From: Candidatus Baldrarchaeota archaeon
Lineage (GTDB): Archaea; Asgardarchaeota; Baldrarchaeia; Baldrarchaeales; DXJG01
Assembly (NCBI GenBank): GCA_019056805.1
Contig: DXJG01000004.1
Span: 1-64,000, forward strand
Direction: 5' to 3'
DNA: 64,000 bases
This document shows positions 1 through 14,748 of this stretch, piece after piece. Within the stretch, counting starts at the first letter, position 1, and every line of letters starts with the position of its first letter. Both the position numbers and the translations under genes were made by a program. Under the pieces are notes generated by a model. It was not told where the DNA came from, did not search any database, and saw only the letters and a program-made list of their open reading frames with translations.

Positions 1-252
1 TATGAGGATTTCTCTGCAAGTTTTCGCTAAGTTTTTTTATTGATTCTAAGATTTCATCTTCATTCTTTCAATCCTCTTTTATGAGGATTTCTCTGCAAGT
101 GGGGTTGGATGATTGTTGAGGAACCTCCGATGATTGTGCCTTTCAATCCTCTTTTATGAGGATTTCTCTGCAAGTAGTTCATCTGGGAAGTATGTTCCTA
201 TTTCTTGTAGATTTAATCTTTCAATCCTCTTTTATGAGGATTTCTCTGCAAG
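1..252 (-). CRISPR. CRISPR array (leader-proximal end; continues beyond the left edge of the window)
   Basis: Repeat (+ strand) CTTTCAATCCTCTTTTATGAGGATTTCTCTGCAAG (35 nt) is perfect at 65-99, 140-174 and 218-252; partial copy at 1-20. Spacers are 21-64, 100-139 and 175-217 (40-44 nt). Minus-strand repeat ends ...GAGGATTGAAAG, the canonical ATTGAAAG 5' handle, so transcription is on the minus strand. Confidence 0.98.
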
Positions 253-716: not shown

Positions 717-1625
717 ATGTTAAAGGCAAACATATTCCACCAAGATACGATTTTTCAGACAAGCTACTTAAATCAATTGAGTTATTTGGATGGATATTTC
801 GTTGTTTCGGGTTTTTCTTGGCGACCTCTCTTCGGGGAACATATGCTTTTCTTAGAGTGGAATTCTCCTGATGGAAGTGGATGTTTCCCTATGTTTGGTG
901 AACATTACTTTAAGTTTTCTAGGCAATTATATTGTAGGTGGTGTTTTTCTAAACTAGCAAAGATAGCTAGTTCGTTAAAACTATGTTCCAAGTGTTTGTG
1001 TAGTCCAAGAGGGATTAAATTTCGATGTAGTGTTGAAGGATGCGGTTCTCCTTTTAATGTAACATGTTATGGTGAGCCTATTTGTGAAGACAGTATTTCA
1101 AAGCTTTGTTATGATAATCACGTTATTTATCTAGCTAGTTTTGGTAGTATCATCAAGATTGGTGTGTCTCGAGAGAAGAGAGGTGGTTTAGATGGTGGTT
1201 TCATTTATAGATTGTTAGAGCAAGGTGTTGATGCTGCTGTTGTTTTTTCTGGCAATTTGCCTCTTTGGGAAGCTCAAGAATTAGAGTTAAAAATCTCTGA
1301 AGAATATAGTATTCCTCTTAGCTTAAATTTTGAAGAAAAACTTGAAGAGTTAATGAATGGTGGGAAAATTCCTTTTGACAAACTCTTGAAAACGGCATTG
1401 GAAATTAAAAATGATTTAAATGGTAAAGTTGATATTATTTGGAAGAACAGCTTTGATTGGGGAAGTGGGCCGCAAGATTTCAATGATATTTTGCGAGGAA
1501 CTGAAATTTTTGGAGATTTGGTTTATGCTAAGGGCAACATTGCTTTCTTTGATTTTTGCGGTGAGATATATGTTTTAAATGTTAGAAATCTGTTGGGTAG
1601 AGGTATTGTGTGCTGGGAGGTTTAA
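717..1625 (+). CDS. DUF2797-like protein with Cys-rich (zinc-binding) N-terminal part
   Basis: CxxC clusters (YCRWC, LCSKC, FRCSVEGC) followed by VIYLASFGSIIKIGVSR...RLLEQGVDAAVVF...EAQELE, resembling the DUF2797 pattern VYLA..S.vKVGITR..RW..QGA..A. Upstream SD-like GGTGGAG. Ends 3 nt before cas1. Confidence 0.65.
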   Translation: MLKANIFHQDTIFQTSYLNQLSYLDGYFVVSGFSWRPLFGEHMLFLEWNSPDGSGCFPMFGEHYFKFSRQLYCRWCFSKLAKIASSLKLCSKCLCSPRGIKFRCSVEGCGSPFNVTCYGEPICEDSISKLCYDNHVIYLASFGSIIKIGVSREKRGGLDGGFIYRLLEQGVDAAVVFSGNLPLWEAQELELKISEEYSIPLSLNFEEKLEELMNGGKIPFDKLLKTALEIKNDLNGKVDIIWKNSFDWGSGPQDFNDILRGTEIFGDLVYAKGNIAFFDFCGEIYVLNVRNLLGRGIVCWEV

Positions 1626-1628
1626 GTA

Positions 1629-2666
1629 GTGGTTGTGGTTTTAATTGATGAACCTGGATCTTTCTTGGGGAAGAAAAGTAAAAGAATTGTGATAAAGAGA
1701 CCTCAGAAGAAGCCAAGAGAAATACCAGTCGTCAAGATTAGTGAGGTTATTATCTCTACTAAGGCTTCACTTAGCACTGACGCAATAAGACTTCTCGCAA
1801 ACAACAACATTCCCATATTGTTTATTGGTAGGTATGGTCCAGTTGCTTTATTACATCCCTTTTTCATGCATGGAACTGTTTTAACCAGAAGAGAGCAAAT
1901 GAAAGCCCATGATGATTGGAGAGGTCTTCACCTAGCTAAAAGTTTTGTTAAGGGAGGAATGATAAACAAAGCAAGATTACTACAATACTTTGCGAAAAGT
2001 AGGAAGAGGACTAATGAGGAACTTGCATCTAAGCTTGTTAAAATATCTGAAGAAATACTTTTGAAAGTTGAGAAAATTGAAGAATTGGACGGACTACTTT
2101 GGGATGTTAGATATAAACTTATGGGTTTAGAGGGAGAAGCAACGCACATATATTACGAAGGATTAGCTATGCTTATCCCTAAGGAGTACGGATTTAAAGG
2201 AAGGGAAAAGAGGCCTCCTACAGATCCTGTAAATGCTGCTTTAAGTTTTGGATATACAATTTTGAATGGCAGAGTTTTATCAGCAATTGCTAGATGCGGT
2301 CTTGAACCTTTCGCTGGTTATCTTCACACTGATAGGAGTGGGAAGCCTAGTTTGATTCTTGATCTTTCAGAAGAATTTAGACAACCCATAGTGGATAGAA
2401 CAGTAGTTTCAATTTTTTCGAAAAGACAATTAAACAATGAAAGTGAATTTACGTGGGAAGGTGGAAGAGTCCTTTTCTCCGAAGAAGGAAAGAAAAAATT
2501 CCTTGAGGCATTAGAAAAACAATTTCGATCATTCACAAGGACACCTACTGGTGCTAAAACAAGCATGGAAAAAGCAATATTCCACCAAGCTAGAAACATG
2601 GTACGTTTTCTTTTAGGTAGAATCGCAAGTTATGAACCTTATATATGGAAATGGTGGGATACCTAA
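1629..2666 (+). CDS. cas1: CRISPR-associated endonuclease Cas1
   Basis: 345 aa; motifs GLEGEATHIYYEG, GYLHTDRSGKPSLILDLSEEFRQPIVDR; directly followed by cas2. Confidence 0.97.
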   Translation: MVVVLIDEPGSFLGKKSKRIVIKRPQKKPREIPVVKISEVIISTKASLSTDAIRLLANNNIPILFIGRYGPVALLHPFFMHGTVLTRREQMKAHDDWRGLHLAKSFVKGGMINKARLLQYFAKSRKRTNEELASKLVKISEEILLKVEKIEELDGLLWDVRYKLMGLEGEATHIYYEGLAMLIPKEYGFKGREKRPPTDPVNAALSFGYTILNGRVLSAIARCGLEPFAGYLHTDRSGKPSLILDLSEEFRQPIVDRTVVSIFSKRQLNNESEFTWEGGRVLFSEEGKKKFLEALEKQFRSFTRTPTGAKTSMEKAIFHQARNMVRFLLGRIASYEPYIWKWWDT

Positions 2667-2948
2667 ATGCCCCTCTGCATAGTAACCTACGATGTACCAA
2701 GTGATAGTTTACGAACACAAATTGCACATAAATTACAGGATTATGGTTTAGATAGGTTACAATTTAGTGTTTTCCATGGATTTCTAACTAGAAATAGAGC
2801 TGAGGAACTAGCTTTAGAACTTAGAGAGCTTATAGGGGAAGATGAAGCTGATGTAAGAATATTTTTCCTATGTGAAAAATGTCTAAGAAAAACGATTATA
2901 GTTAAAGAAAGATATCCTCTAGAAGCCGTGGAGGCTGTAATAACTTGA
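2667..2948 (+). CDS. cas2: CRISPR-associated protein Cas2
   Basis: 93 aa; MPLCIVTYDVPSDSLRTQIAHKLQDYGLDRLQFSVFHGFL. Confidence 0.96.
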   Translation: MPLCIVTYDVPSDSLRTQIAHKLQDYGLDRLQFSVFHGFLTRNRAEELALELRELIGEDEADVRIFFLCEKCLRKTIIVKERYPLEAVEAVIT

Positions 2949-3541
2949 ATAAACCTGTTAATGTGAAGTTAAAGCCTATTTTTACAGCTGAAGACATAAG
3001 ACAGTACTTTTACTGTCCTCGAATAATATACTTTAGATACGTACTAAGAGCAAGAGTAAGTGAAACCGTAAAAATGAGAAAAGGCAGAGAAATTCACAAA
3101 GAAAAATACAGATCTAAAAAAATTGAAATAGATGGTGAAAAACAAAAATATTTTAATGTATATTTGTTGTCCGAAGAATATGGATTAGCAGCTTTGATAG
3201 ATCTCCTTATTTACGATGGCGAAAATATAGATGTCGTTGAAATAAAATCTAAAAAGACTGGAAATTTCAAATTTCTAAAACATCATAAAATGCAACTAGT
3301 TGCACAAGCAGTCCTAGCTGAAAAAGAACTAAGGAAAAATGTCAGAAAAATCGGTGTACTTTACGATGATGTAGATAAAATAACATGGTTCGAAATAAAT
3401 GATTCAGACAAGTTGGAAATTTTTGAAACACTTAAAAAAATAAATGAGATCGTGATTTATGAAAATATTCCAAATCCAGCAAAGAATACAGCTAAATGCG
3501 TAGATTGCGAATATAAGTATTTGTGCGAAGACGCAACTTAA
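2945..3541 (+). CDS. cas4: CRISPR-associated exonuclease Cas4
   Basis: 198 aa; FYCPRIIYFRY, EIHKEK, DVVEIKSKKTG, C-terminal CVDCEYKYLC; overlaps the end of cas2. Confidence 0.93.
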   Translation: MNKPVNVKLKPIFTAEDIRQYFYCPRIIYFRYVLRARVSETVKMRKGREIHKEKYRSKKIEIDGEKQKYFNVYLLSEEYGLAALIDLLIYDGENIDVVEIKSKKTGNFKFLKHHKMQLVAQAVLAEKELRKNVRKIGVLYDDVDKITWFEINDSDKLEIFETLKKINEIVIYENIPNPAKNTAKCVDCEYKYLCEDAT

Positions 3542-3594
3542 TTTCACTTATCTATGGCCTATGTTTTGATTGAAAAATATAATAGGTCCTAATA

Positions 3595-4266
3595 TTAGTT
3601 TTTCTCATAAGAAGTCTTACTTGATTTTTCTGTTAAAGCCAATGCTAGGGGTCTTAACTTATATTCAACTCTTCTGCCTGTTTTTCTCTCTATCACATAT
3701 CCTTTTTCTATTAATCCTCTAATTCTTTTGAATAGCGTTGCTTTGGGTATTTCTAATTCTCTGCTTAGTTCTGAAAGTGTGTAATGTGGAAATTCCCGTA
3801 GAACTCCTAATAATTTGATCTCAGTGCTAGTTAACGGTTTTAACACGAACAGTTCTATCGGAAAACGGACTGGTTCTGCTAGATTCTCGGGATATAGCTC
3901 TAGATATATTTTGTAGGGTGGAAAAACGTATAATACGGCAGCTAGGGTTTCTAGTATTAGTAGCCTCATTCCCCCGCTAAGATTCACGTAAACATCCTCC
4001 GTTTCTCTATATTCGAAAAGTTTCCTAACGATGTCTCCTATGGCTTCTTCTGGATTTGTAACGTCAACTTTCAATACGGTTATTTGTACGTCTTCAAAAA
4101 ATCGAGTAATGAAGTTTCTAAATTCATCTTCTGCGCGTTTTGACTTTTCATCTTCCTGTAAGGGTTTTAGAATTAGAACGTGGTCTCCAACCTTTGGCGT
4201 GGTCTTCATAACTCCCTTTATTTGAAATTTAACATCATAACCAAGAGTTACTATTAAAAGTTTCAT
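3595..4266 (-). CDS. csa3: Csa3-type CARF-HTH regulator
   Basis: N-terminal CARF-like region with VYVNLSGGMRLLILETLAAVL; C-terminal winged helix (YTLSELSRELEIPKATLFKRIRGLIEKGYVIERKTGRRVEYKL). Confidence 0.88.
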   Translation of the reverse strand: MKLLIVTLGYDVKFQIKGVMKTTPKVGDHVLILKPLQEDEKSKRAEDEFRNFITRFFEDVQITVLKVDVTNPEEAIGDIVRKLFEYRETEDVYVNLSGGMRLLILETLAAVLYVFPPYKIYLELYPENLAEPVRFPIELFVLKPLTSTEIKLLGVLREFPHYTLSELSRELEIPKATLFKRIRGLIEKGYVIERKTGRRVEYKLRPLALALTEKSSKTSYEKN

Positions 4267-4267
4267 G

Positions 4268-5026
4268 TTAATCTACCCTGATGTTATTTAAGAATTCCAT
4301 AAGTTCATTTCTAGCATCTAAAATATCATCAGGATGCGGAAGATCTCTAAGAAAGATTGGCATCCATCCTGCATCTTGGCAGTTACCTCTATTTTTTGAA
4401 GCGGTTATATTATCACATAAAGTTAAAATTCTCAGAAAAATTATTGTATTTAAATAAAGATTTAACCCCTTTTTGAAGCTTTTTAACCTGTCATCAAGTT
4501 GTTTAACTAATGGAACTATATCTTCGTTGAATGTTAGAGAGTTTGGAAGTAATTTTACATTTATTATGTTAATATTCCACTTCTTGCAAAGGTAAGAAAT
4601 CAAGCTTTTAAGGTCATTGGAGTTTCTCAAGTTTAATTCTTTTGGAGCCTTAAATTTATCCCAGGAGCGTATGTCTTTAATTAATCTCGGACCTCTCATA
4701 GCCATATGATGCCAGATTATTGATAATTGTATGGTATCTCTTAGGAAAATATCGATATTTAATAGCACTTTTCCAGCTATAGCAGCTGAGTAATATTCAT
4801 GTTTTGGAAAACCTCTATTGGTTTTAATTCTTTCCTGATATTCGTCGTATCCTTTTGCGACGTCATGAAGAAGTATCATTGCTTTTAGTGCTTCCTCTGG
4901 GTTTTTTATTCCTGTCCGCTTCTTTATAAATGTCATGTATTTTGTATTTACGAAGTATTTTTGAAATACCTCTATTCCTACATCTAAATGTTCGGAAAGA
5001 AGTTCACATTTAGCTGCTAACACCAT
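4268..5026 (-). CDS. cas3'': Cas3'' HD nuclease subunit
   Basis: LLHDVAKGYDEYQ, KHEYYSA, WHHMAMRGPR HD motifs; next to the cas3' helicase. Confidence 0.88.
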   Translation of the reverse strand: MVLAAKCELLSEHLDVGIEVFQKYFVNTKYMTFIKKRTGIKNPEEALKAMILLHDVAKGYDEYQERIKTNRGFPKHEYYSAAIAGKVLLNIDIFLRDTIQLSIIWHHMAMRGPRLIKDIRSWDKFKAPKELNLRNSNDLKSLISYLCKKWNINIINVKLLPNSLTFNEDIVPLVKQLDDRLKSFKKGLNLYLNTIIFLRILTLCDNITASKNRGNCQDAGWMPIFLRDLPHPDDILDARNELMEFLNNIRVD

Positions 5027-6716
5027 ATGCCACCTTTTGGTAAAGCTTAGTGTCTATCTGAACTCCGAGAACGCCCAAATGAACCATATAAATTTCAGGA
5101 AAAGTTAAAGTTAGCATTTTTTTCAGAGTACTATAATCATCAATCGACATAATTGTTCTCCCCTTGTAAACAAGTAATTTAACGTCGCCTGTTTGTAATA
5201 AACGTTTTATAAACCTTATTGTGGCAGGAAATCCAAATTTTGAGAGATTTTTAATAAATTCCCTTTCTTCGAGATTTAATTCTTCGTTCCATACAAGGAC
5301 ATTAATAAGTTTTGCTTCCCTAATAAAGCCTTCTCCAAGAACTTCGATGATAGCATCTTTAGAACTGGAAAAAGGATTTAACATGTGCCTTATTTTGCTG
5401 GGTTTTGGGAACATCTTTTCGTGTACATACACCCTATCTATTAATTCTTGATAACCCAGTCCTTCCTTAGTTCTAGGGATTCTCCACCAAACAGTATTCT
5501 CTTTTTCTAAAATTTTTAATGTGTTCAGCGTTAAGTCTAATGAATAGACGTGATATTTATCGCTGAAATTGTTGAAACTATTTTTGTCAAGTAAAATAGT
5601 AATTTCTCCAAATTCTTCTTCAAATCTCGCAACTCTGCCAGCGCGTTGAACTAAAGAGCTAGCTGGAGCTATATCTGTTATTAATATCTGAGCTGATATA
5701 TTTACCCCAGCTTCTATAACCTGAGTAGAGACTATTATCCATTCGTTTTCCTTTAAACGTTCTATAGCACGTTCTTTATCTCTCGAAGTTAACTTTCCGT
5801 GAAGGAGAATGGGCGATAAACCCTTGCGGATTAGGGCATTATAAACTCCTATAGCTCTATCAACTTTATTTAAAACAACAAGAATCCTTTCATAACTACC
5901 ACTTTTCTCTAAAACCTTTTCAACAATCGAGGTTATTTCATTAACTTTTTCTATTCTAGTTTTTATTTTCTTCCCTCTTTCTATTGCCTCAAACTCCGGA
6001 TCTTTATAAGTTTCCCCATATATAATATTTGAGTAGGCAGTACCTGTGCAATTACTCACATTGATCATAAAGTCTCTCAGGAATTTAGGAAAAGTAGCTG
6101 TCATTATTATTGTGGGTATTTTACTCCATGCTAGGAAGAAAAGTAGAGACGCTAAAGCGTCACGAGAAGAGGGTGAATCAAGAAGAATCTGGGGCTCATC
6201 TAATATTACTGTTGATTCCAGTATTGCGCCTCGTGATACTTCGTAATGTCCGTAGTTAGTCCATTCACTACTACGAATTATCTTAGTGGCTTCGGCTGGT
6301 GGAAATTTCATCAAGTGCATTGAGAATGTATCGAACGTGGTGAATATAAGGAGCTTGTTAAGGAAGGGACTGCCTGGAACGTACATCATTTGTTTTGCCG
6401 TTAATTTCAATACTTTCGATAAACCTATGTTCTTAATATTACCAATAAAGTTGGAGTAGGCGTCTTCAATAATACTTCTAAGGGGAAGGACATGTATTGT
6501 TCGTATACTGTTCTCCGGGTTAAGGATATTGTAAAGGCCAAGGGAGTAAACTATAGAGGTTTTTCCATAGCCAGTAGGTAACTGTACTGCAAGCATGTCT
6601 CCCTTAAAGTTTTCCAATACCGTTGGAATAATTTGGCGTTCACTACGCTTCGAGTAGAATCCGGACAATACCAGTGATTTATACACATCAGATGGACTAA
6701 TCTGATAACGCATCAT
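5010..6716 (-). CDS. cas3': Cas3' helicase subunit (DEAD/DExH-type)
   Basis: LPTGYGKTSIVYSLG (Walker A), VILDEPQILLD, MTATFP, STQVIEAGVNI, QRAGRVARF. Confidence 0.93.
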   Translation of the reverse strand: MMRYQISPSDVYKSLVLSGFYSKRSERQIIPTVLENFKGDMLAVQLPTGYGKTSIVYSLGLYNILNPENSIRTIHVLPLRSIIEDAYSNFIGNIKNIGLSKVLKLTAKQMMYVPGSPFLNKLLIFTTFDTFSMHLMKFPPAEATKIIRSSEWTNYGHYEVSRGAILESTVILDEPQILLDSPSSRDALASLLFFLAWSKIPTIIMTATFPKFLRDFMINVSNCTGTAYSNIIYGETYKDPEFEAIERGKKIKTRIEKVNEITSIVEKVLEKSGSYERILVVLNKVDRAIGVYNALIRKGLSPILLHGKLTSRDKERAIERLKENEWIIVSTQVIEAGVNISAQILITDIAPASSLVQRAGRVARFEEEFGEITILLDKNSFNNFSDKYHVYSLDLTLNTLKILEKENTVWWRIPRTKEGLGYQELIDRVYVHEKMFPKPSKIRHMLNPFSSSKDAIIEVLGEGFIREAKLINVLVWNEELNLEEREFIKNLSKFGFPATIRFIKRLLQTGDVKLLVYKGRTIMSIDDYSTLKKMLTLTFPEIYMVHLGVLGVQIDTKLYQKVAYGVSS

Positions 6717-7923
6717 AAATACCCTTCAACAAGTCATTATATTTTAATGGTGATTTTTCAGGAGTAATTCTAGCCATTAAGTAGACTAATTCCTCGGGCC
6801 TACGAGAACCCACTATGGATTGATACAGAAGTTGTGTTATACGATAACATGTCATGTAGTCGCCATACATTCTCGAACAGTAGTCTTGTTTCCCGCTTGA
6901 AAGTCTTATAGTACAGAATAAGAAATTTATTAGTATATTTAGTACTCTTTCTGGATCATTTGTACAATTGGCCAGTTTGTAGGCAAATTTCATTACAGGC
7001 TCCACATTAATGCCTATTTTTTCAAGCATAGTGAAAGATTTTCCTGTATAAAGTATCCTGATAACATTGTAGGAAGGTATCTCAAGGATCCCCTTTTCAT
7101 GATAATCTAAATATGTTTGAAGACCTAAAAGCAAAATATAGGCTACTACTGGTGAAGGTCGTACCCTAACTTTGGAGATCACATTATATATTCCTTTTTC
7201 TCCATAGAAGGCTTTGCTGACCCTCCCTTCTCCCGTTAAAACTTTTACATGTTCTTTGAAATTGTAATCTTCCAAAGCTTTTATGAAAACGGATTCGGGT
7301 AACGGAGACAAAATTATTTCTCCACCAGCGTAATAACCGTAGCTGAGCGAAAATCCAGCCAATACTAATGCCATCCACTCCCTGCTCATTTTATAGTCAA
7401 ATTTAACGGTAAAAGTTCCAAATCCCTTTCCGTATTCATATTTTTCTATTTTAAATGGCTGGAGGTTTGTATACTTTCCATCTCCAAGTTTAATATTATC
7501 TCCCTTCACCTTAATTATCGAAAGTTGGTCTATCCATCTTTCCCCATTTTTAACGATATCATCTTTAGCCCATTGAATCATGTATTTAATATATGAAAGA
7601 TAATCCCCATTGGGGACTTGTATACCTACTGCTTCAAATATTTTATTTAATGTTTGTTTGTCGTTTTTATGAATACCAGGAAAATATACTCCTAACTCTT
7701 CTTTTAATGCAATATTTTTCAATGATGTTTCAAACATGTCCTTCAAAAATGATATAAAGAAATTTTCACTGGTTTCGACCACCAATTCGTTGCCATTATA
7801 TTTTACGTCCGCATTGAAATATTCATAATCAGTAAACACTGAAAGAGAGCTAATTACTAGATCTCTTACTATGGATCCCTCTGGGGGGATTATAATGACC
7901 CATTCCATAACTGTTACCTCCAA
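6697..7923 (-). CDS. Type I-A large subunit, Cas8a-like (Csa4 family?)
   Basis: 408 aa; position between cas5 and cas3' in an I-A operon; CRITQLLYQSIVGSRRPEELVYLMAR near the C-terminus. Called mainly from gene order. Confidence 0.7.
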   Translation of the reverse strand: MEVTVMEWVIIIPPEGSIVRDLVISSLSVFTDYEYFNADVKYNGNELVVETSENFFISFLKDMFETSLKNIALKEELGVYFPGIHKNDKQTLNKIFEAVGIQVPNGDYLSYIKYMIQWAKDDIVKNGERWIDQLSIIKVKGDNIKLGDGKYTNLQPFKIEKYEYGKGFGTFTVKFDYKMSREWMALVLAGFSLSYGYYAGGEIILSPLPESVFIKALEDYNFKEHVKVLTGEGRVSKAFYGEKGIYNVISKVRVRPSPVVAYILLLGLQTYLDYHEKGILEIPSYNVIRILYTGKSFTMLEKIGINVEPVMKFAYKLANCTNDPERVLNILINFLFCTIRLSSGKQDYCSRMYGDYMTCYRITQLLYQSIVGSRRPEELVYLMARITPEKSPLKYNDLLKGIYDALSD

Positions 7924-8687
7924 GGAACAATTATATCGTCTCCAGCTTCAAGGGCAGTATATTCATCTTTGAGTTCTACCTGAACTTTAGTACTTTCCAA
8001 GGCATCCCAATCGTATGGAAAGACTATGGGGATTTTAGGTGCCGAGGTATAATCTCCAATTGGAGTAGAAGTCCAATCTACTACATTAAAGATTGAAAAT
8101 ACTCCGTTTACTCTTTTTGAAGCTCTTAAAGGAAAATAGAAACTAGTTTCTACCGTCCTTTCTTTTCGATATTTAATTGTACCATACTCAACTTTACTAA
8201 CTGATACTATAGATTCCCGAGCCCCTATACGGCATATACTCCATGCTGAATATATAAGATTCTCGAGCCAGTCGTTACCTAGGAGTTTCTCGGCTACTTT
8301 ATCCTCGAAAATATATATGATTTCTAAACATCCCGTAGCTACCGTATAAATCTTACCAGTAGCTACGGCATCAGTAATGATACTTTTTTCTCTTAATTTA
8401 TAAGAAACTACTCTGCTTAAATCATTATATTCAAGTAATGGGATATCCACTTTCAGATGTATGTTCCTAAATAATTTTCTTATTCTTTCGGCGCTACTGT
8501 ACTCTCCATACACTTCACCTTTGTTGAGATTAAGACCGTAAGCCAGTGCTCCGATTAAAGTCGTGGGGGGTATTATTTTAAGAGCTGGTCTAGACTTGGT
8601 GAAACCATGATAATTGAGCAAGAATCCCCAGTGAGGTCTTAAAAAAATTTTAAGGTAGTAAAGCGCCATAAAACCTCCTCTAGACAC
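7914..8687 (-). CDS. cas5: Cas5 (type I-A)
   Basis: LYYLKIFLRPHWGFLLNYHGFTKSRPALKIIPPTTLIGALAYGL, Cas5 N-terminal motif; next to cas7. Confidence 0.88.
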   Translation of the reverse strand: MSRGGFMALYYLKIFLRPHWGFLLNYHGFTKSRPALKIIPPTTLIGALAYGLNLNKGEVYGEYSSAERIRKLFRNIHLKVDIPLLEYNDLSRVVSYKLREKSIITDAVATGKIYTVATGCLEIIYIFEDKVAEKLLGNDWLENLIYSAWSICRIGARESIVSVSKVEYGTIKYRKERTVETSFYFPLRASKRVNGVFSIFNVVDWTSTPIGDYTSAPKIPIVFPYDWDALESTKVQVELKDEYTALEAGDDIIVPWR

Positions 8688-9768
8688 TTAAGAGGTCAAA
8701 AAGTTTTACAAATGCTTCTTCTGGTGTTTTAACTTTCTCTACCATCTTGGGTAACTCGATCTCTTTACTGTATGCTATAATTTTAGTGTTCGGCTGAATT
8801 CCTAGCTTTCTTAGCATGTCTTCATAAGATTTAAGTCTACTAACAGTATCTTCTATGAAGTTAGGCCATTGAGGCGGTGAAATCGTAAATGGTTTACCTT
8901 TACTTGCTACAATGGCAAGACTTAGAATATCGCTTATAGGCTGAAACCTTGTTCTTTTTGCTCCGTAAGTCATGCCCGTAATTACTTGGGCCAATGCTCC
9001 AATTGCAACCTTTATTCTTCTTTTTCTTTCGTTCTCATCTACAGCATCTTCCACTTTTATCATACTGGTTCTTCCTATTCCATCTAGATTTATATTAAAT
9101 GATAGACCGTAAATGGCAGAGGCAGTCTCTATATAATATATCATTTGAGCTTGTCTTTCTGTTTGTTCACTCTCGGTCTGTCCGCTTCCAGATTGCTCAC
9201 CCTTTAATGTTTCACTCGCTACATGTCTGACGTGAAATTGGGATTCTATTGCAGTAGCTTCAAGAGTATCGTACGTTGGTATAATGTACCCCACCTGAAA
9301 TATTGAGGTACGTTTTACGGGAAAATCTTCGGCAATCATAAAGCCACCTATGTCAGCGACAAGGCTAAGCTTAATCGCTGTTTTTTCGATTTCATGTTTC
9401 AATGTTAAGATGTTTTTGACATCTTTCTTCTTTTTTAATTCCTTATTTCGTTCAAAGAGACTAAGAAGCTCAGGAGGCATGTGTTTTTTATCGCCAAATT
9501 TAAATAGTTCACCCCTAAGAGCCCATTCATCTATGGGGGGCTCTTTACCATAGATAAGCTTGGCAACTTCGGTTAAAGCAACTTGATAAGCGTGAGCAAA
9601 GGATTCACCACTTATGGCTGGAACGTATACTATCCTATATTGGTCACCCTTTTTTATCACGATAGGCGCTCTTCTATGTTTAGTTAAGTTGCCAACAGAC
9701 TCAACCATGTTCAAGGCTTCAATATTTGATAAAAATCTAACACCAACCGAGATAAACATACCCATCAC
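8680..9768 (-). CDS. cas7: Cas7 (Csa2/DevR family)
   Basis: MFISVGVRFLSNIEALNMVESVGNLTKHRRAPIV...VPAISGESFAHAYQ; GMTYGAKRTRFQP. Confidence 0.92.
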   Translation of the reverse strand: MMGMFISVGVRFLSNIEALNMVESVGNLTKHRRAPIVIKKGDQYRIVYVPAISGESFAHAYQVALTEVAKLIYGKEPPIDEWALRGELFKFGDKKHMPPELLSLFERNKELKKKKDVKNILTLKHEIEKTAIKLSLVADIGGFMIAEDFPVKRTSIFQVGYIIPTYDTLEATAIESQFHVRHVASETLKGEQSGSGQTESEQTERQAQMIYYIETASAIYGLSFNINLDGIGRTSMIKVEDAVDENERKRRIKVAIGALAQVITGMTYGAKRTRFQPISDILSLAIVASKGKPFTISPPQWPNFIEDTVSRLKSYEDMLRKLGIQPNTKIIAYSKEIELPKMVEKVKTPEEAFVKLFDLLSV

Positions 9769-10119
9769 CTATCCTAAATCTTTTTCTGGCAAAGTTAAAG
9801 CAAGGGCTGCAAGAATACTGGCTACACTTAAATCCCTGCTAATAAGCTCTACTACTTTCTGAACCACGTTTGCCGATGGTAAATGAACTTTTTCATTTTG
9901 ATCAAATGCGGATCGGGCCTCCCTAAGAACTTCTCTGATAGTTATTTCAGCTATTGTGGGATTGTATGCGTTGGCTAATCGATCTATGTAACCGTATTTC
10001 CTTGATCTAGCAAAGTATCTTAAGGTGCGAGCAAAATCTTTTATAGCATCCCATTCTTCTTTAGATAGACGATGTAATTCCTCCTGCACTTCTCTCTCAC
10101 CATATTTTAAATGTTGCAT
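9769..10119 (-). CDS. csa5: Csa5 small subunit (Cas11a)
   Basis: 116 aa; GYIDRLANAYNPTIAEITIREVLREARSAF; directly upstream of cas7. Confidence 0.83.
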   Translation of the reverse strand: MQHLKYGEREVQEELHRLSKEEWDAIKDFARTLRYFARSRKYGYIDRLANAYNPTIAEITIREVLREARSAFDQNEKVHLPSANVVQKVVELISRDLSVASILAALALTLPEKDLG

Positions 10120-10407
10120 TTAGTTATTTATACTTTATGGTCTCTTCGGTATGGAAATCGTTTATAGTAGATGGAAACAAATGTATATGATTTCTATTTG
10201 AGAGAAACGCTAACGACGGTTTAAACATTTATTAAAAGCAGATATTCATGATAATTTTCCCTTTTCCAAGCGATTCTATTTGCATCTTTATGTCTAGAGG
10301 CGAGTTAAAAATTGTAAAAGAAACAGTTTTTAACTTACATAGTAACATGGAAAAATTACATAGCGTCGAATTCCAACTAAATCAAAACTTCTGTTTTAAA
10401 AAGCAAA

Positions 10408-10430
10408 GAGTAAAAATAACTCTTTTACTC
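10408..10430. repeat. Perfect 8-bp inverted repeat in the csa5-cas6 gap
   Basis: GAGTAAAA-ATAACTC-TTTTACTC, in a ~700-bp region without convincing coding sequence. Confidence 0.5.
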
Positions 10431-10833
10431 AAACGCAGGACGGTATCTTTTTGAGTTTAATAAATATTTTACGTATTTATGATAATTTTCTTCGCAATAT
10501 TATTTGTAAAACCATTATTTTGTGAAACAGCACGTTTCTATTACTGGTGGACAAACCAATGTACATTTACATTATAACTTATATCATCTTAGATTGCCAT
10601 CTGCACGGATGTTACATCTAACTCTAAATTAAGAACTAACTTAAAAACTTGAAATGTTAGGAAGAGATTTGTGAGGAAGTAAGTTTTGGTGCTTAGTTAC
10701 AAGGTACTGATATCTGGAAGGATTAAATGAAAATTTGGGTGTAGAAGTACTCGTGGACTGAGGTATTAGACATTTTAGTATTGTTTGTTTATTAAGTTTA
10801 GAGATAGCATGATAATTTTGAACGTTTTTCTAG

Positions 10834-11640
10834 TCAAGTCGTTCTGTTTTCCTGCATGTTTATTTTTGTTACTCCCATTCCTTGTGCTCTGTGTGCTCCC
10901 GTGTTTGCGTACTCTGCGTACTTTGTTAGTATTGTTGTCCATTTTGCGTATCCGCTTTTTGGGTTTTTTATTATGTACTCTATTTTTCCTTTGTATCCTG
11001 TTTGTTTTGTATCTTTTATTTGGACTTCTCTTGTTCCTCCTCTAAAGGATTTTATGTACATGTTTTTTAATGTCCACGTTTTTAGTTCCTCTAGATCTAT
11101 TTTGTAGGGATGAAACATGTTCCATATTCTTGCTAGATTTGTGTAGAGTAGGTGGGGTAGGGGGAAGGGTAGGTATGCTTCTGCTTCTTTCCATCGAAAA
11201 TGGGTTGGGGTTAAGAATTCTATTTGTATTTTTGTGGTTGCGGGTGCTTCTTTTAATAGGGTCTCATAAGTTTTCGATTCTATTTGTATTTGTAATATGT
11301 TGAATGATATTTTTCCAATTTCTATTTGTTGAGTTTCTACGATTGCTTCTGTTGTTGTTTTTGCTAGTTCTTCTGTTAAGGTATTTATGGCGAAACTGTA
11401 TCGTTTTCCTTCTTCTATTATCCATTTCTCCTCTAATATCTTCTTTTTTCCTTGAAGAGGTTTTAATGGTTGTACCGCGTAGGGTCTTAGAGCGTTTTCT
11501 TGGTGTAATTTTTCTGCTAGTTGTTTGTCTTGTTTTGCTATTATGTTTAAGAATAAGGCTTGTATTTGTGGTCCCGTGAAGGGATTTAGAACCCCTTTTT
11601 TTGTTGCCATAACTTGGAAGGTAAATTTACATACTTTCAT
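10834..11640 (-). CDS. cas6: CRISPR RNA endonuclease Cas6
   Basis: 268 aa; FLTPTHFRW, C-terminal G-rich loop NTGAHRAQGMGVTKI. Confidence 0.9.
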   Translation of the reverse strand: MKVCKFTFQVMATKKGVLNPFTGPQIQALFLNIIAKQDKQLAEKLHQENALRPYAVQPLKPLQGKKKILEEKWIIEEGKRYSFAINTLTEELAKTTTEAIVETQQIEIGKISFNILQIQIESKTYETLLKEAPATTKIQIEFLTPTHFRWKEAEAYLPFPLPHLLYTNLARIWNMFHPYKIDLEELKTWTLKNMYIKSFRGGTREVQIKDTKQTGYKGKIEYIIKNPKSGYAKWTTILTKYAEYANTGAHRAQGMGVTKINMQENRTT

Positions 11641-11669
11641 TTTAATCCTCTTTTATGAGGAATTCTTTG
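11639..11669 (-). promoter_or_regulatory. CRISPR-repeat mimic in the cas6 5'UTR (hairpin containing the Shine-Dalgarno)
   Basis: Minus strand CAAAGAATTCCTCATAAAAGAGGATTAAAATG; 18 nt (11644-11661) identical to the repeat core TCCTCATAAAAGAGGATT and about 27/31 overall. Stem TCCTC/GAGGA, loop ATAAAA. GAGG is the likely SD for the ATG at 11638-11640. Confidence 0.85.
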
Positions 11670-11729
11670 ATGTTTTTTGTTATTATAAATGGGTTTTTGC
11701 TTTTATATTCTATGTTGTTAGTTTTGATT

Positions 11730-13301
11730 TTAGGGTATGAATTCGTGTAGGTACGTTTTTGTTTGTTCTTTTTTGTTGATTGTTCGAGTTGTGGTCTTCC
11801 GTTTGTTTATTTGTTTTCTGATTTCTATTGTTGTGAGGTGTTTTGTTTTTCTTGGTCTTATTTGTGTTATTATTGGGTATTTTGCTGTTACTCCTGTTAT
11901 TGCTGCGGTTCCCGTCGGTAGATAGGGTATTCTTTGGAAGTCTTCTGCTGTTGTGTAGTCTATGTAGGGTCTTATGTAGTCTAGGTCTGTTTTGCTGTCT
12001 ATTCTTAGGATTATTTTTGTTCCGCATTGGCTTATGACGTCTTTGTCTAGTCCTACTATTCTTTGGCTTGTTATGCATAGTCCTATCCCAAATTTTCTCC
12101 CTTCGCGTGCTATTTTCCTCATTATTGTTTTGCTGTATGTTTCTTCGTCTTGTGGTGCAAATCTATGGCTTTCTTCTACTACAACCATTAGGGGTGGTAT
12201 TTTTTCTTCTTTTCTAGCGTTAAAGAGTTCATTTAGCAGCGATCCTACGAATATTCTTCTTATATGTTCTTCCATTTCTTCACTTACATCTATTATTGTT
12301 AGTTGTCTTGGTTTGACTATTTCTTCTGGTTTAAGTCCCTTTCCAAATATTCCTATTTCTTTTAGGATGCTTATTCTTCGTTTTAGGGATAGTTGGGTGC
12401 TTCTGGCGAATCCCCATTCTCTAGCTATTTTTTCTACTTCTTGTAGGAGGGTTTCTGGGTCTATTGTTTCTATTTGTTTTTCTTTTAGTGACTTCATTGC
12501 TAGGTATAGTAGGTCTTTCATTACTGTTGAGAGTTGGCATATTTCTGCCATTGCATCAGCGTTTAGTGAGTTGAAGTTTAATGTTAGTTCCCCAGTTCCT
12601 TGGTAGACTGGTGATAGAATTTTTACATTGTAGGTTTTTGGGTTGAGATTTAATTCTTTTAGTCTTTCTAGGTCTTCTTTTTCATCATTTTGATACTGGA
12701 ATGTGTAGTATTCCCCGTGGGGGTCAATGACCACTACTGGGAAGTTGTGTTCTAATAATTCTTCGATTAGGACTCCTACCGTGTAGGATTTTCCTGTTCC
12801 TGTTGCCCCTAGTATAGCTATGTGTAATCTTACTAGTTTTTCTATGTCTAGTTTTACTTTTATTTCCGGATTTCCATACATTGTACCTATGAATGCTCCA
12901 TCTTCTTTTAGTCCCATTAGTTTTGTTAGTATGTTTTTGTCTGCTTTGTAAACTCTTTCTCCCGGTTCTGGAGCAATGTTTGGTGGGTGTATTTTTTCTT
13001 CTTCGAACATTCCTACGATTCTTACCTCGGCGGCTCTCCATCTTCCAATGTTTACTGGGAATCTCGCTGTTACTGGGAGTTGTTTGAGCAGGTGGTCTCT
13101 TACGAATTCAGGATTTTTAAAAAATTGGTTAAAGGCTTTTACTTCAGTGATTCTCCCTATTATTACGTATTTTCCAGCTGGGACTTCAACGTACTCTCCA
13201 ACTTTAATATCTTTGTCTTCCGCTATTTGGAATGTGAATTTTAGATGTGTTGGAGGGCCTTCTCTACTAATAATTATTCCGATTTCATTCTTCTTCTCCA
13301 T
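11730..13301 (-). CDS. herA-like: HerA-like hexameric ATPase/translocase (likely start MEKKNEIGI..., in ORF 11730..13355)
   Basis: Walker A AILGATGTGKSYTVGVLIEELL; Walker B PLMVVVEESHRFAPQ; N-terminal barrel-like region; SQCGTKIILRI. Confidence 0.88.
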   Translation of the reverse strand: MEKKNEIGIIISREGPPTHLKFTFQIAEDKDIKVGEYVEVPAGKYVIIGRITEVKAFNQFFKNPEFVRDHLLKQLPVTARFPVNIGRWRAAEVRIVGMFEEEKIHPPNIAPEPGERVYKADKNILTKLMGLKEDGAFIGTMYGNPEIKVKLDIEKLVRLHIAILGATGTGKSYTVGVLIEELLEHNFPVVVIDPHGEYYTFQYQNDEKEDLERLKELNLNPKTYNVKILSPVYQGTGELTLNFNSLNADAMAEICQLSTVMKDLLYLAMKSLKEKQIETIDPETLLQEVEKIAREWGFARSTQLSLKRRISILKEIGIFGKGLKPEEIVKPRQLTIIDVSEEMEEHIRRIFVGSLLNELFNARKEEKIPPLMVVVEESHRFAPQDEETYSKTIMRKIAREGRKFGIGLCITSQRIVGLDKDVISQCGTKIILRIDSKTDLDYIRPYIDYTTAEDFQRIPYLPTGTAAITGVTAKYPIITQIRPRKTKHLTTIEIRKQINKRKTTTRTINKKEQTKTYLHEFIP

Positions 13302-14748
13302 TTTTAATTCTCTCCCATCTTTTTTCATCTCTTTCTTCTTGTAATTGTTGTACATAGTCTTGAAAGACTGCTTTTAGTACTCCTTCTATTGATCTTCTTA
13401 GTTGACCTAGGTTTGAATAGGCTAATGCTTGAGCTGTACTGACTATTCCTGGTCCAGGTGGGATTCCTGGTGCTGGTGGTACTATTGCTGATGAGTATGC
13501 TAGGTCTCTGATTTTTTCATATTCTTCCCACGGATCTTTTTGAGATATGAAATCGAATCTGACGATGTAATTTCTATATTTTAGATAAAATTCATACCAG
13601 TCTTCCACGGGGGGTCTACCTTTCTCACGTTCTCTTTCTATTAAGCATGTGGTGTCTCCATCATCTAAAATATTTAGTAAAAAATTCATGTCGTTTGTTT
13701 CGGCAACTTTGAACTTTAATAATCGTTCTGCATGTTTTAAAAATATGTTATCCGTTGGAAAAGCTGTTACACCAACAACAAGTATTTTTCGTTTTTTCGC
13801 TTCTCCTACGAGTTTATAAAATAGTTCGTGACATTTATCTCTAATTAGTACTAGTTTCTTTGCTTTGACTACGAATCCATGTGGAACTAAGGTTCCCATT
13901 CTAAAATAAATATCGAACTTGTCTCCATGTTCCTCTATTGTTTTAATATCGAGTTGGTAGTGTAAAATTTCTTCTAGGTATCTTGCTGCTATACTTCTGC
14001 CTACATGTAGTAGTTCTGGGAAGTCTGTTGATAACTCGTAGAAAGGTTCTCCAGGCAGAAAAGGCTCTTTACCTCTAAATGATATAAGTTCTGGCACAAC
14101 CCTACTATCTGACCTATATTGATTTAGTATGTTTTTTTCATAGTAGCCTATGTAGCATCCTGCACTAAGATAAACTACAGATAAAACTGCAAAGTAATGT
14201 GCTCCATAATTGTTAATGTTGCGGCAGGAAGCTGATCCTGGAACATAAATATCATCTAAAGCTATATTTCTAGCTGATTTTTCATATATTAGCTTTTCTC
14301 CTATAAGCGGGCCGTATCTTCCATCTATTTTAGTCTTTCTCACTTTTTCTCTTATTTCTCCTGAAAACGCTAATTCTAGATTCAGTTTTTTGAAAATACG
14401 TTTTACTTTGTTTTCTAGAGTCTTTGCTCCTAATACTGTTTGTATGTATCCTGGATTGATGAAATCATCAAGCTTAAGTTGTATATATGGGCCTAGAGCT
14501 ACTTCTTTTAATACTTCATTTACCCATTCCTTGTTTACTGTATATTTTCCAGTACCAGCGTAATTTAGGATGCCAAGTGTGAGTAGGTCGTTTATGTAGT
14601 CTCTGATAGCTCTCTCGGTTAGTCCTGTTTCTTCGGCAAGTTTATGGACATCTATATATCCTTCTTTTGCTTCGATTTCCATGCATATATTGATTAGGAA
14701 AGTTATCCGAGCTCTGTAGGTAGCTGGTACTTTACCCATATAAAGCAC
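13285..14748 (-). CDS. NurA-like nuclease with N-terminal winged helix
   Basis: N-terminal wHTH (GYIDVHKLAEETGLTERAIRDYINDLLTLGIL). NurA-like C-terminal features: NDMNFLLNILDDGDTTCLI, EDWYEFYLKYRNYIVRFDFI, PGPGIVSTAQALAYSNLGQLRRSIEGVL. Overlaps the start of HerA. Confidence 0.62.
   Translation of the reverse strand: MLYMGKVPATYRARITFLINICMEIEAKEGYIDVHKLAEETGLTERAIRDYINDLLTLGILNYAGTGKYTVNKEWVNEVLKEVALGPYIQLKLDDFINPGYIQTVLGAKTLENKVKRIFKKLNLELAFSGEIREKVRKTKIDGRYGPLIGEKLIYEKSARNIALDDIYVPGSASCRNINNYGAHYFAVLSVVYLSAGCYIGYYEKNILNQYRSDSRVVPELISFRGKEPFLPGEPFYELSTDFPELLHVGRSIAARYLEEILHYQLDIKTIEEHGDKFDIYFRMGTLVPHGFVVKAKKLVLIRDKCHELFYKLVGEAKKRKILVVGVTAFPTDNIFLKHAERLLKFKVAETNDMNFLLNILDDGDTTCLIEREREKGRPPVEDWYEFYLKYRNYIVRFDFISQKDPWEEYEKIRDLAYSSAIVPPAPGIPPGPGIVSTAQALAYSNLGQLRRSIEGVLKAVFQDYVQQLQEERDEKRWERIKNGEEE

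What the first reader, a model, noticed from the sequence alone, without database searches (positions are those of the whole stretch)
11638..11669. CRISPR-repeat mimic embeds the cas6 Shine-Dalgarno: candidate Cas6 autoregulatory cleavage switch
Seen directly: the cas6 5'UTR (minus) reads CAAAGAATTCCTCATAAAAGAGGATTAAA-ATG. It shares an 18-nt perfect block (TCCTCATAAAAGAGGATT) and about 27/31 positions with the array repeat CAGAGAAATCCTCATAAAAGAGGATTGAAAG. The stem (TCCTC/GAGGA) and loop (ATAAAA) are intact, and the stem's 3' arm GAGG is the likely ribosome-binding site. Established: Cas6 cleaves repeats to leave an 8-nt handle, ATTGAAAG here. Inference: cleavage at the equivalent point, GAGG^ATTAAAATG, would cut between the SD and the start codon. 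Binding alone would hide the SD. Either gives a negative-feedback loop in which excess Cas6, not occupied by pre-crRNA, shuts off its own translation. It may also split the herA-cas6 transcript. This is unlike the known CreR/CreTA elements, which act as guide RNAs through a spacer-like segment.
Basis: partly seen in the sequence, partly recalled or inferred. Interest (0 to 1): 0.92.

Follow-up and report, generated by a model that had tools for sequence, protein, structure and literature searches.

The report
CRISPR-repeat hairpin at cas6 start
In an Asgard archaeon, the gene for the enzyme that cuts CRISPR RNA has an almost perfect copy of that enzyme's own cutting target as its ribosome-binding site, so the enzyme may limit its own production, but related species lack the copy and it could still be a decayed CRISPR fragment.

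Summary
A solitary repeat copy lies directly before cas6: 18/18 identical over the stem-loop core, 27/31 (27/35 over the full repeat). It occurs nowhere else outside the array in the 1.92 Mb assembly. The 3' stem arm, GAGG, sits 6 nt before an ATG that homologues support.

The mechanism is plausible but unproven. In favour: a solitary sense-strand hit exactly at the ribosome-binding site of the gene whose product should read it; an intact hairpin; an intact Cas6 with a conserved active-site-like histidine. Published precedents show Cas6 cutting solitary repeat-like RNAs, including ncRNA60 beside a Sulfolobus cas6 gene.

Against: the co-variation test gave no support. Baldrarchaeum yapensis, with nearly the same repeat and a 47-48% identical Cas6, has nothing at either cas6 gene. 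Jordarchaeia and the other genome with nurA-herA-cas6 order lack it too. Of 77 cas6 genes tested against their own repeats, only this one has the copy at the ribosome-binding site. A same-genus genome carries two solitary copies elsewhere, so the repeat family does scatter. Cleavage would leave a 6-nt leader that an archaeon might still translate, so binding is the likelier repressive step.

Verdict: real, lineage-specific; autoregulation about 45% likely.

The parts
11639..11669 (-). Repeat-like element (27/31 to the array repeat) in the cas6 leader; sequence CAAAGAATTCCTCATAAAAGAGGATTAAAAT
11646..11661 (-). Hairpin TCCTC-ATAAAA-GAGGA, identical to the array repeat's stem-loop
   Evidence: MFE -6.6 kcal/mol
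11647..11650 (-). GAGG, 3' arm of the stem and likely Shine-Dalgarno, 6 nt before ATG; SD-like motifs precede an early start in 41 of 53 window ORFs against 8% of internal ATGs
11641..11646 (-). ATTAAA, counterpart of the first 6 nt of the repeat's 8-nt handle ATTGAAAG; inferred Cas6 cut between 11647 and 11646
   Evidence: sequence; cut site is inference from the 8-nt handle rule
11699..11710 (-). AGAATATAAAAG, possible TATA box placing the start near 11680 so that the hairpin is transcribed; a second candidate TTTATAATA (11689-11681) would start inside the stem
   Evidence: sequence; position rule is established knowledge, not tested
10834..11640 (-). cas6 (268 aa; TIGR01877 E 6.7e-21, PF10040); H46 and the GAxR..GMG loop invariant among relatives
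11730..13355 (-). herA-like ATPase directly upstream of cas6 on the same strand
13285..14748 (-). nurA-like gene upstream of herA (name from gene order; homologue in the same order in G008)
1..252 (-). CRISPR array end, 35-nt repeats at 65-99, 140-174, 218-252 and a cut copy at 1; leader to the right
717..10119 (.). Type I-A cas genes: cas1, cas2, cas4 (+); csa3, cas3'', cas3', cas5a, cas7/csa2, csa5 and an unmatched ORF in the cas8a position (-)

Best explanation
The cas6 leader carries a single ectopic copy of the Cas6-recognition stem-loop, placed so that the 3' arm of the stem is the ribosome-binding site. Most likely free Cas6 binds, and may cut, this hairpin in its own mRNA, so that Cas6 not occupied by pre-crRNA lowers its own translation. 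Shown: the copy, its identity to the live array repeat, its solitary occurrence, the hairpin, the SD spacing, the strand. Inferred: transcription through the stem, Cas6 binding, cleavage, and the effect on translation. Blocking of the SD is the more probable effective step, because a cut would leave a near-leaderless mRNA that an archaeon could still translate.
For: 18 identical nt with chance expectation far below 1; no other ectopic copy in the 1.92 Mb assembly. A random ectopic copy within the 2251 intergenic nt of the cas locus would fall in the 35 nt before cas6 in sense orientation with probability about 0.8% (arithmetic). All mismatches to the repeat lie outside the 16-nt hairpin (C(19,8)/C(35,8)=0.003 over 35 nt, 0.04 over 31 nt; arithmetic). 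SD motifs are the rule in this window. Cas6 is intact, and its nearest solved relatives are the Cas6A and Cas6B chains 4c8y and 4c98, which are Thermus enzymes acting on hairpin repeats (own knowledge). Precedents: S. solfataricus Cas6-3 cuts ncRNA60, with a single repeat-like motif close to the cas6-3 gene, as efficiently as true repeats, and most Cas6 enzymes stay bound to their product (PMC4041471); Cas6f processes solitary repeats in vivo (PMC10651486); Cas6 sites engineered into 5' UTRs repress strongly in human cells (PMC9095627).
Against: No conservation: both Baldrarchaeum cas6 genes, with nearly the same repeat, lack it, as do Jordarchaeia with a similar repeat and G008 with the same nurA-herA-cas6 order. 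It is the only RBS-located copy among 77 cas6 genes tested. Solitary copies of this repeat exist in a same-genus genome away from cas genes. Two of eight handle positions differ and the lower stem is weakened. One candidate TATA box would start transcription inside the stem. No expression or binding data exist.
Confidence: 0.45

Rival explanations
1. Array remnant: the element is the last repeat of a decayed array, or a copy moved by recombination, kept only because it happens to supply a good Shine-Dalgarno. Cas6 may touch it, but there is no regulatory role.
For: Solitary repeat copies occur in related genomes: two in G001, several in G057. Arrays sit directly upstream of cas6 in some archaea: G392, about 90 nt before the ATG; G050, a two-repeat mini-array; G007. 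The element is absent from all relatives checked.
Against: Mismatches spare the whole hairpin; no second repeat, spacer or convincing leader remains in the 89-nt herA-cas6 gap (leader similarity p 0.003 to 0.24 depending on gap penalties); in none of the array-before-cas6 cases does a repeat reach the RBS.
Confidence: 0.33
2. crRNA-like RNA: Cas6 cuts the element and the downstream cas6 mRNA 5' end, with its handle-like start, is loaded into an effector, as proposed for ncRNA60, or the unit guides repression as CreR/CreA do.
For: A handle-like ATTAAAAT follows the stem; ncRNA60 precedent.
Against: No downstream repeat; the best match to the would-be seed elsewhere in the window is 8 nt and lacks a CCN PAM; handle differs at 2 of 8 positions.
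Confidence: 0.08
3. Cas6-independent hairpin: the stem only tunes access to the SD (for example by temperature), or acts in DNA as a binding site for a repeat-binding protein such as Cbp1.
For: The hairpin covers the SD by itself. Cbp1 binds CRISPR repeats in Sulfolobales (own knowledge; a paper on it, PMC10883916, was listed but not read).
Against: A plain SD hairpin does not explain identity to the array repeat in the loop and in the ATT beyond the stem; a Cbp1 homologue was not sought.
Confidence: 0.08
4. Chance resemblance.
For: The region is A-rich.
Against: Local score 24 against a null maximum of 15; 18 identical nt.
Confidence: 0.005

Closest known systems
Sulfolobus solfataricus ncRNA60 (PMC4041471)
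   Same: A single repeat-like motif close to a cas6 gene, cut by that Cas6 in vitro, giving a handle-like 5' end.
   Different: Described as a non-coding RNA loaded into the CSM complex, without hairpin potential, function unclear; not described as the cas6 ribosome-binding site.
Solitary repeat units / RNA anti-CRISPRs (Racr) (PMC10651486)
   Same: A solitary repeat copy that Cas6 binds and processes.
   Different: Encoded by phages and acts in trans against Cascade; here it is chromosomal, in cis, at the cas6 start. No viral contig carries it.
CreR / CreA crRNA-like regulators (PMC12737573, PMC8501985)
   Same: Degenerate CRISPR repeat near cas genes; possible feedback on Cas levels that senses crRNA abundance.
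   Different: Those need a spacer-like guide, Cascade and a promoter target; none found here.
Engineered endoRNase UTR switches (PERSIST, PMC9095627)
   Same: Cas6-type recognition site in a 5' UTR represses the message.
   Different: Synthetic, in human cells, used on reporters; here natural and on cas6 itself.

Membership tests
CRISPR array repeat of the resident I-A system | Identity to the array repeat beyond chance | tested here: met
   18/18 core, 27/35 overall
CRISPR array repeat of the resident I-A system | Occurs in an array with regularly spaced copies | tested here: not met
   no second copy near 11.6 kb
CreR/CreA crRNA-like regulator | Second repeat-like unit flanking a spacer-like segment | tested here: not met
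   (one-repeat CreA exists, PMC8501985, so not fatal alone)
CreR/CreA crRNA-like regulator | Spacer-like segment partially matching a cas or toxin promoter next to a PAM | tested here: not met
   best other match in the window 8 nt, no CCN PAM; only the segment directly after the handle was taken as seed
Solitary repeat unit / Racr | Encoded on a virus or other mobile element | tested here: not met
   no viral contig hit; locus is a chromosomal cas operon
ncRNA60-like Cas6 substrate | Single repeat-like motif cleaved by Cas6 | not testable with these tools
   motif present; cleavage needs biochemistry
Cas6 cis-autoregulatory element (hypothetical) | Repeat-like stem conserved in cas6 leaders and tracking the local repeat | tested here: not met
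   absent from all relatives available; no closer relative with an orthologous cas6 was found in the collection
Cas6 cis-autoregulatory element (hypothetical) | SD or start codon inside or next to the stem | tested here: met
   GAGG is the 3' arm, 6 nt before ATG
Cas6 cis-autoregulatory element (hypothetical) | Stem included in the cas6 transcript | tested here: inconclusive
   two TATA candidates, one including and one excluding the stem; herA read-through would include it

The most novel reading that the evidence does not exclude
A natural Cas6 feedback switch in which the enzyme's own recognition hairpin doubles as the ribosome-binding site of cas6, so that the ratio of free Cas6 to pre-crRNA sets Cas6 synthesis in cis, without a guide RNA or Cascade.
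Probability: 0.45. Interest if true: 0.75.

Novelty: new variant of a known kind. Interest (0 to 1): 0.52.

Why it matters
How archaea match Cas6 to pre-crRNA supply is largely unknown. A hairpin copy at the cas6 start would be about the simplest possible sensor of free Cas6, a natural counterpart of engineered endoRNase UTR switches, and directly testable with one protein and two short RNAs. It also offers a route by which stray CRISPR repeats become regulators, next to CreA, scaRNA and ncRNA60.

Tried and rejected
(1) Copy of the array leader plus first repeat before cas6: an alignment looked promising, but significance ran from p=0.003 to 0.24 with the gap penalty, and a search of the genome with the leader did not return the cas6 region; left as inconclusive. 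(2) Recurrence in Thermococcus-like genomes: the match at G338/G298/G236 lies inside cas6 codons 4-12 and is not shared by sister species; expected about 0.15 times by chance over 124 tests (own estimate), so not counted. (3) CreR-like target: none. (4) Rfam family: none. (5) Similarity between the flank of the C9 terminal repeat and the cas6 start: p 0.22. (6) Viral copies: none. (7) Target of the G001 spacer-like segment near its cas genes: nothing above background.

Full report
What is there. The window is the start of contig C11 of a 1.92 Mb, 18-contig assembly. Its nearest named relative in the collections is Candidatus Baldrarchaeum yapensis, in the same order (G003, named through), so this is a Baldrarchaeia-type Asgard archaeon. 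The first 15 kb hold the end of a CRISPR array (repeat CTTGCAGAGAAATCCTCATAAAAGAGGATTGAAAG, minus strand) and a type I-A cas locus, ending with cas6, a herA-like gene and a nurA-like gene, all on the minus strand. The array continues off the contig; the end of C9 holds a terminal repeat of the same family, GAGGATTAAGAG, probably the other end of one broken array.

The element. Directly before cas6, minus 11669-11639 repeats the array repeat at 27 of 31 positions, with 18 identical nt spanning the hairpin and the following ATT. Exact copies of the 18-mer exist in the genome only in array ends and here. The ATG start is supported by the alignment with Baldrarchaeum Cas6. The 3' arm of the stem, GAGG, is 6 nt before ATG; SD-like motifs precede an early start in 41 of 53 ORFs in the window, against 8% of internal ATGs (the ORF starts were chosen leniently, so 41 of 53 is an upper figure). 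The hairpin folds at -6.6 kcal/mol alone, 5 pairs against 7 in the repeat because of one A-to-T change. So the sequence claim is correct, and chance is excluded.

Is it a Cas6 site? The protein is an intact Cas6 (TIGR01877 E 6.7e-21). H46 and the glycine-rich C-terminal loop are invariant in six homologues; from general knowledge H46 sits where the catalytic histidine of Cas6 enzymes lies. Its nearest solved relatives by sequence are Cas6A and Cas6B chains (4c8y, 4c98), which from own knowledge are Thermus enzymes that cut repeats at the base of a hairpin. The 8-nt handle rule places the cut at GAGG^ATTAAA. Published work shows that a solitary repeat-like RNA is enough for Cas6: ncRNA60 in Sulfolobus, close to cas6-3, is cut like a true repeat (PMC4041471), and phage solitary repeats are processed in vivo (PMC10651486). 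This supports binding or cutting; it is not a demonstration.

The evolutionary test. Repeat-like sequence was sought in the upstream regions of cas6 genes from Asgard and other archaeal genomes, 134 regions in all, 77 of them in genomes where an own array repeat was known. Only the present gene has the copy at its ribosome-binding site. Baldrarchaeum (repeat CTTTCAAGAGAAATCCTCTAAAAGAGGATTGAAAG; Cas6 47-48% identical) has none at either cas6. Four Jordarchaeia/Freyarchaeota genomes, two of whose repeats were recovered and are similar, have none. G008, the only other genome seen with nurA-herA-cas6 order, has none. The limit of this test is distance: no orthologous cas6 was found in the two same-genus genomes, so persistence over short times could not be examined, and mimics that keep only structure would have been missed.

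A related find. In the same-genus genome G001, contig C17 holds two solitary copies of the same repeat, 88 nt apart, between genes unrelated to CRISPR, with the hairpin TCCTCATAAAAGAGG intact in both and diverged flanks. They look like a minimal CRISPR or a CreA-like unit behind a TATA-like sequence. Together with the cas6 copy this gives three ectopic copies in the genus, all sparing the hairpin. That pattern fits retained Cas6 recognition, as described for creA repeats (PMC8501985), but it also shows that copies of this repeat do get scattered, which is the main rival. The copies were found by searching for part of that hairpin, so the sparing is partly ascertainment.

Mechanism and weighing. 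For function: the only ectopic copy in this genome lies within the 35 nt before the gene of its presumed reader, in sense, with the stem arm as SD (about 0.8% by chance even if ectopic copies are confined to the 2251 intergenic nt of the locus), and no mismatch touches the hairpin. Against: no conservation, and arrays or mini-arrays lie close upstream of cas6 in a few other archaea, which offers a path by which a last repeat could be left there. If Cas6 binds, it covers the SD. If it cuts, the product has a 6-nt leader, which archaea may translate (established knowledge), so repression by cutting alone is not assured. Transcription through the stem is likely but unproven: one TATA candidate would start at about 11680, another inside the stem, and read-through from herA would include it. 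Autoregulation is put at 0.45, remnant at 0.33, the rest shared among crRNA-like loading and Cas6-independent roles.

Compared with what is known. It is not a CreR/CreA unit by the tests run (no second repeat, no PAM-adjacent target) and not a viral solitary repeat. It works most like ncRNA60 as a substrate and like engineered Cas6-responsive UTRs as a circuit (PMC9095627). No paper in the held library was found that reports a natural repeat mimic at the cas6 ribosome-binding site; the library lacks most subscription journals, so this is weak evidence of novelty.

Noticed in passing
L135:1476-1600 (G001:C17, same genus): Two solitary copies of the window's CRISPR repeat, 88 nt apart with a 53-nt spacer-like segment and a TATA-like sequence upstream, far from cas genes; candidate CreA-like unit or minimal CRISPR.
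   Followed up: partly
window 10120-10833: A roughly 715-nt gap without long ORFs between cas6 and csa5 holds direct repeats of a motif like TATTCATGATAATTTTC (10243-10259, 10474-10490, a partial copy near 10809), perhaps operator sites.
   Followed up: no
L097:9970-10066 (G050): A two-repeat mini-array on the same strand about 100 nt upstream of a cas6 gene; possible CreR-like regulator.
   Followed up: no
window 11730-14748; L124:10193-13271 (G008): Gene order nurA-herA-cas6 is shared with a distant Asgard genome, suggesting HerA-NurA is a stable neighbour of this type of Cas6.
   Followed up: partly
L224/L214/L226, cas6 codons 4-12: In three Thermococcus-like genomes the start of cas6 (FAIRLRPEN) resembles the local CRISPR repeat (GCAATAAGACTC...GGAGAAT); probably chance or coding constraint.
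   Followed up: yes
L122:7311 and 9320 (G057): Isolated degenerate repeats between genes outside the main arrays.
   Followed up: no
window 6697-7923: ORF in the cas8a position matches no Pfam or NCBIfam family: probably a divergent large subunit.
   Followed up: no
G000:C9:555831-556022: Fragment resembling the N-terminal part of Cas6 in a 117-aa open frame elsewhere in the same genome.
   Followed up: no
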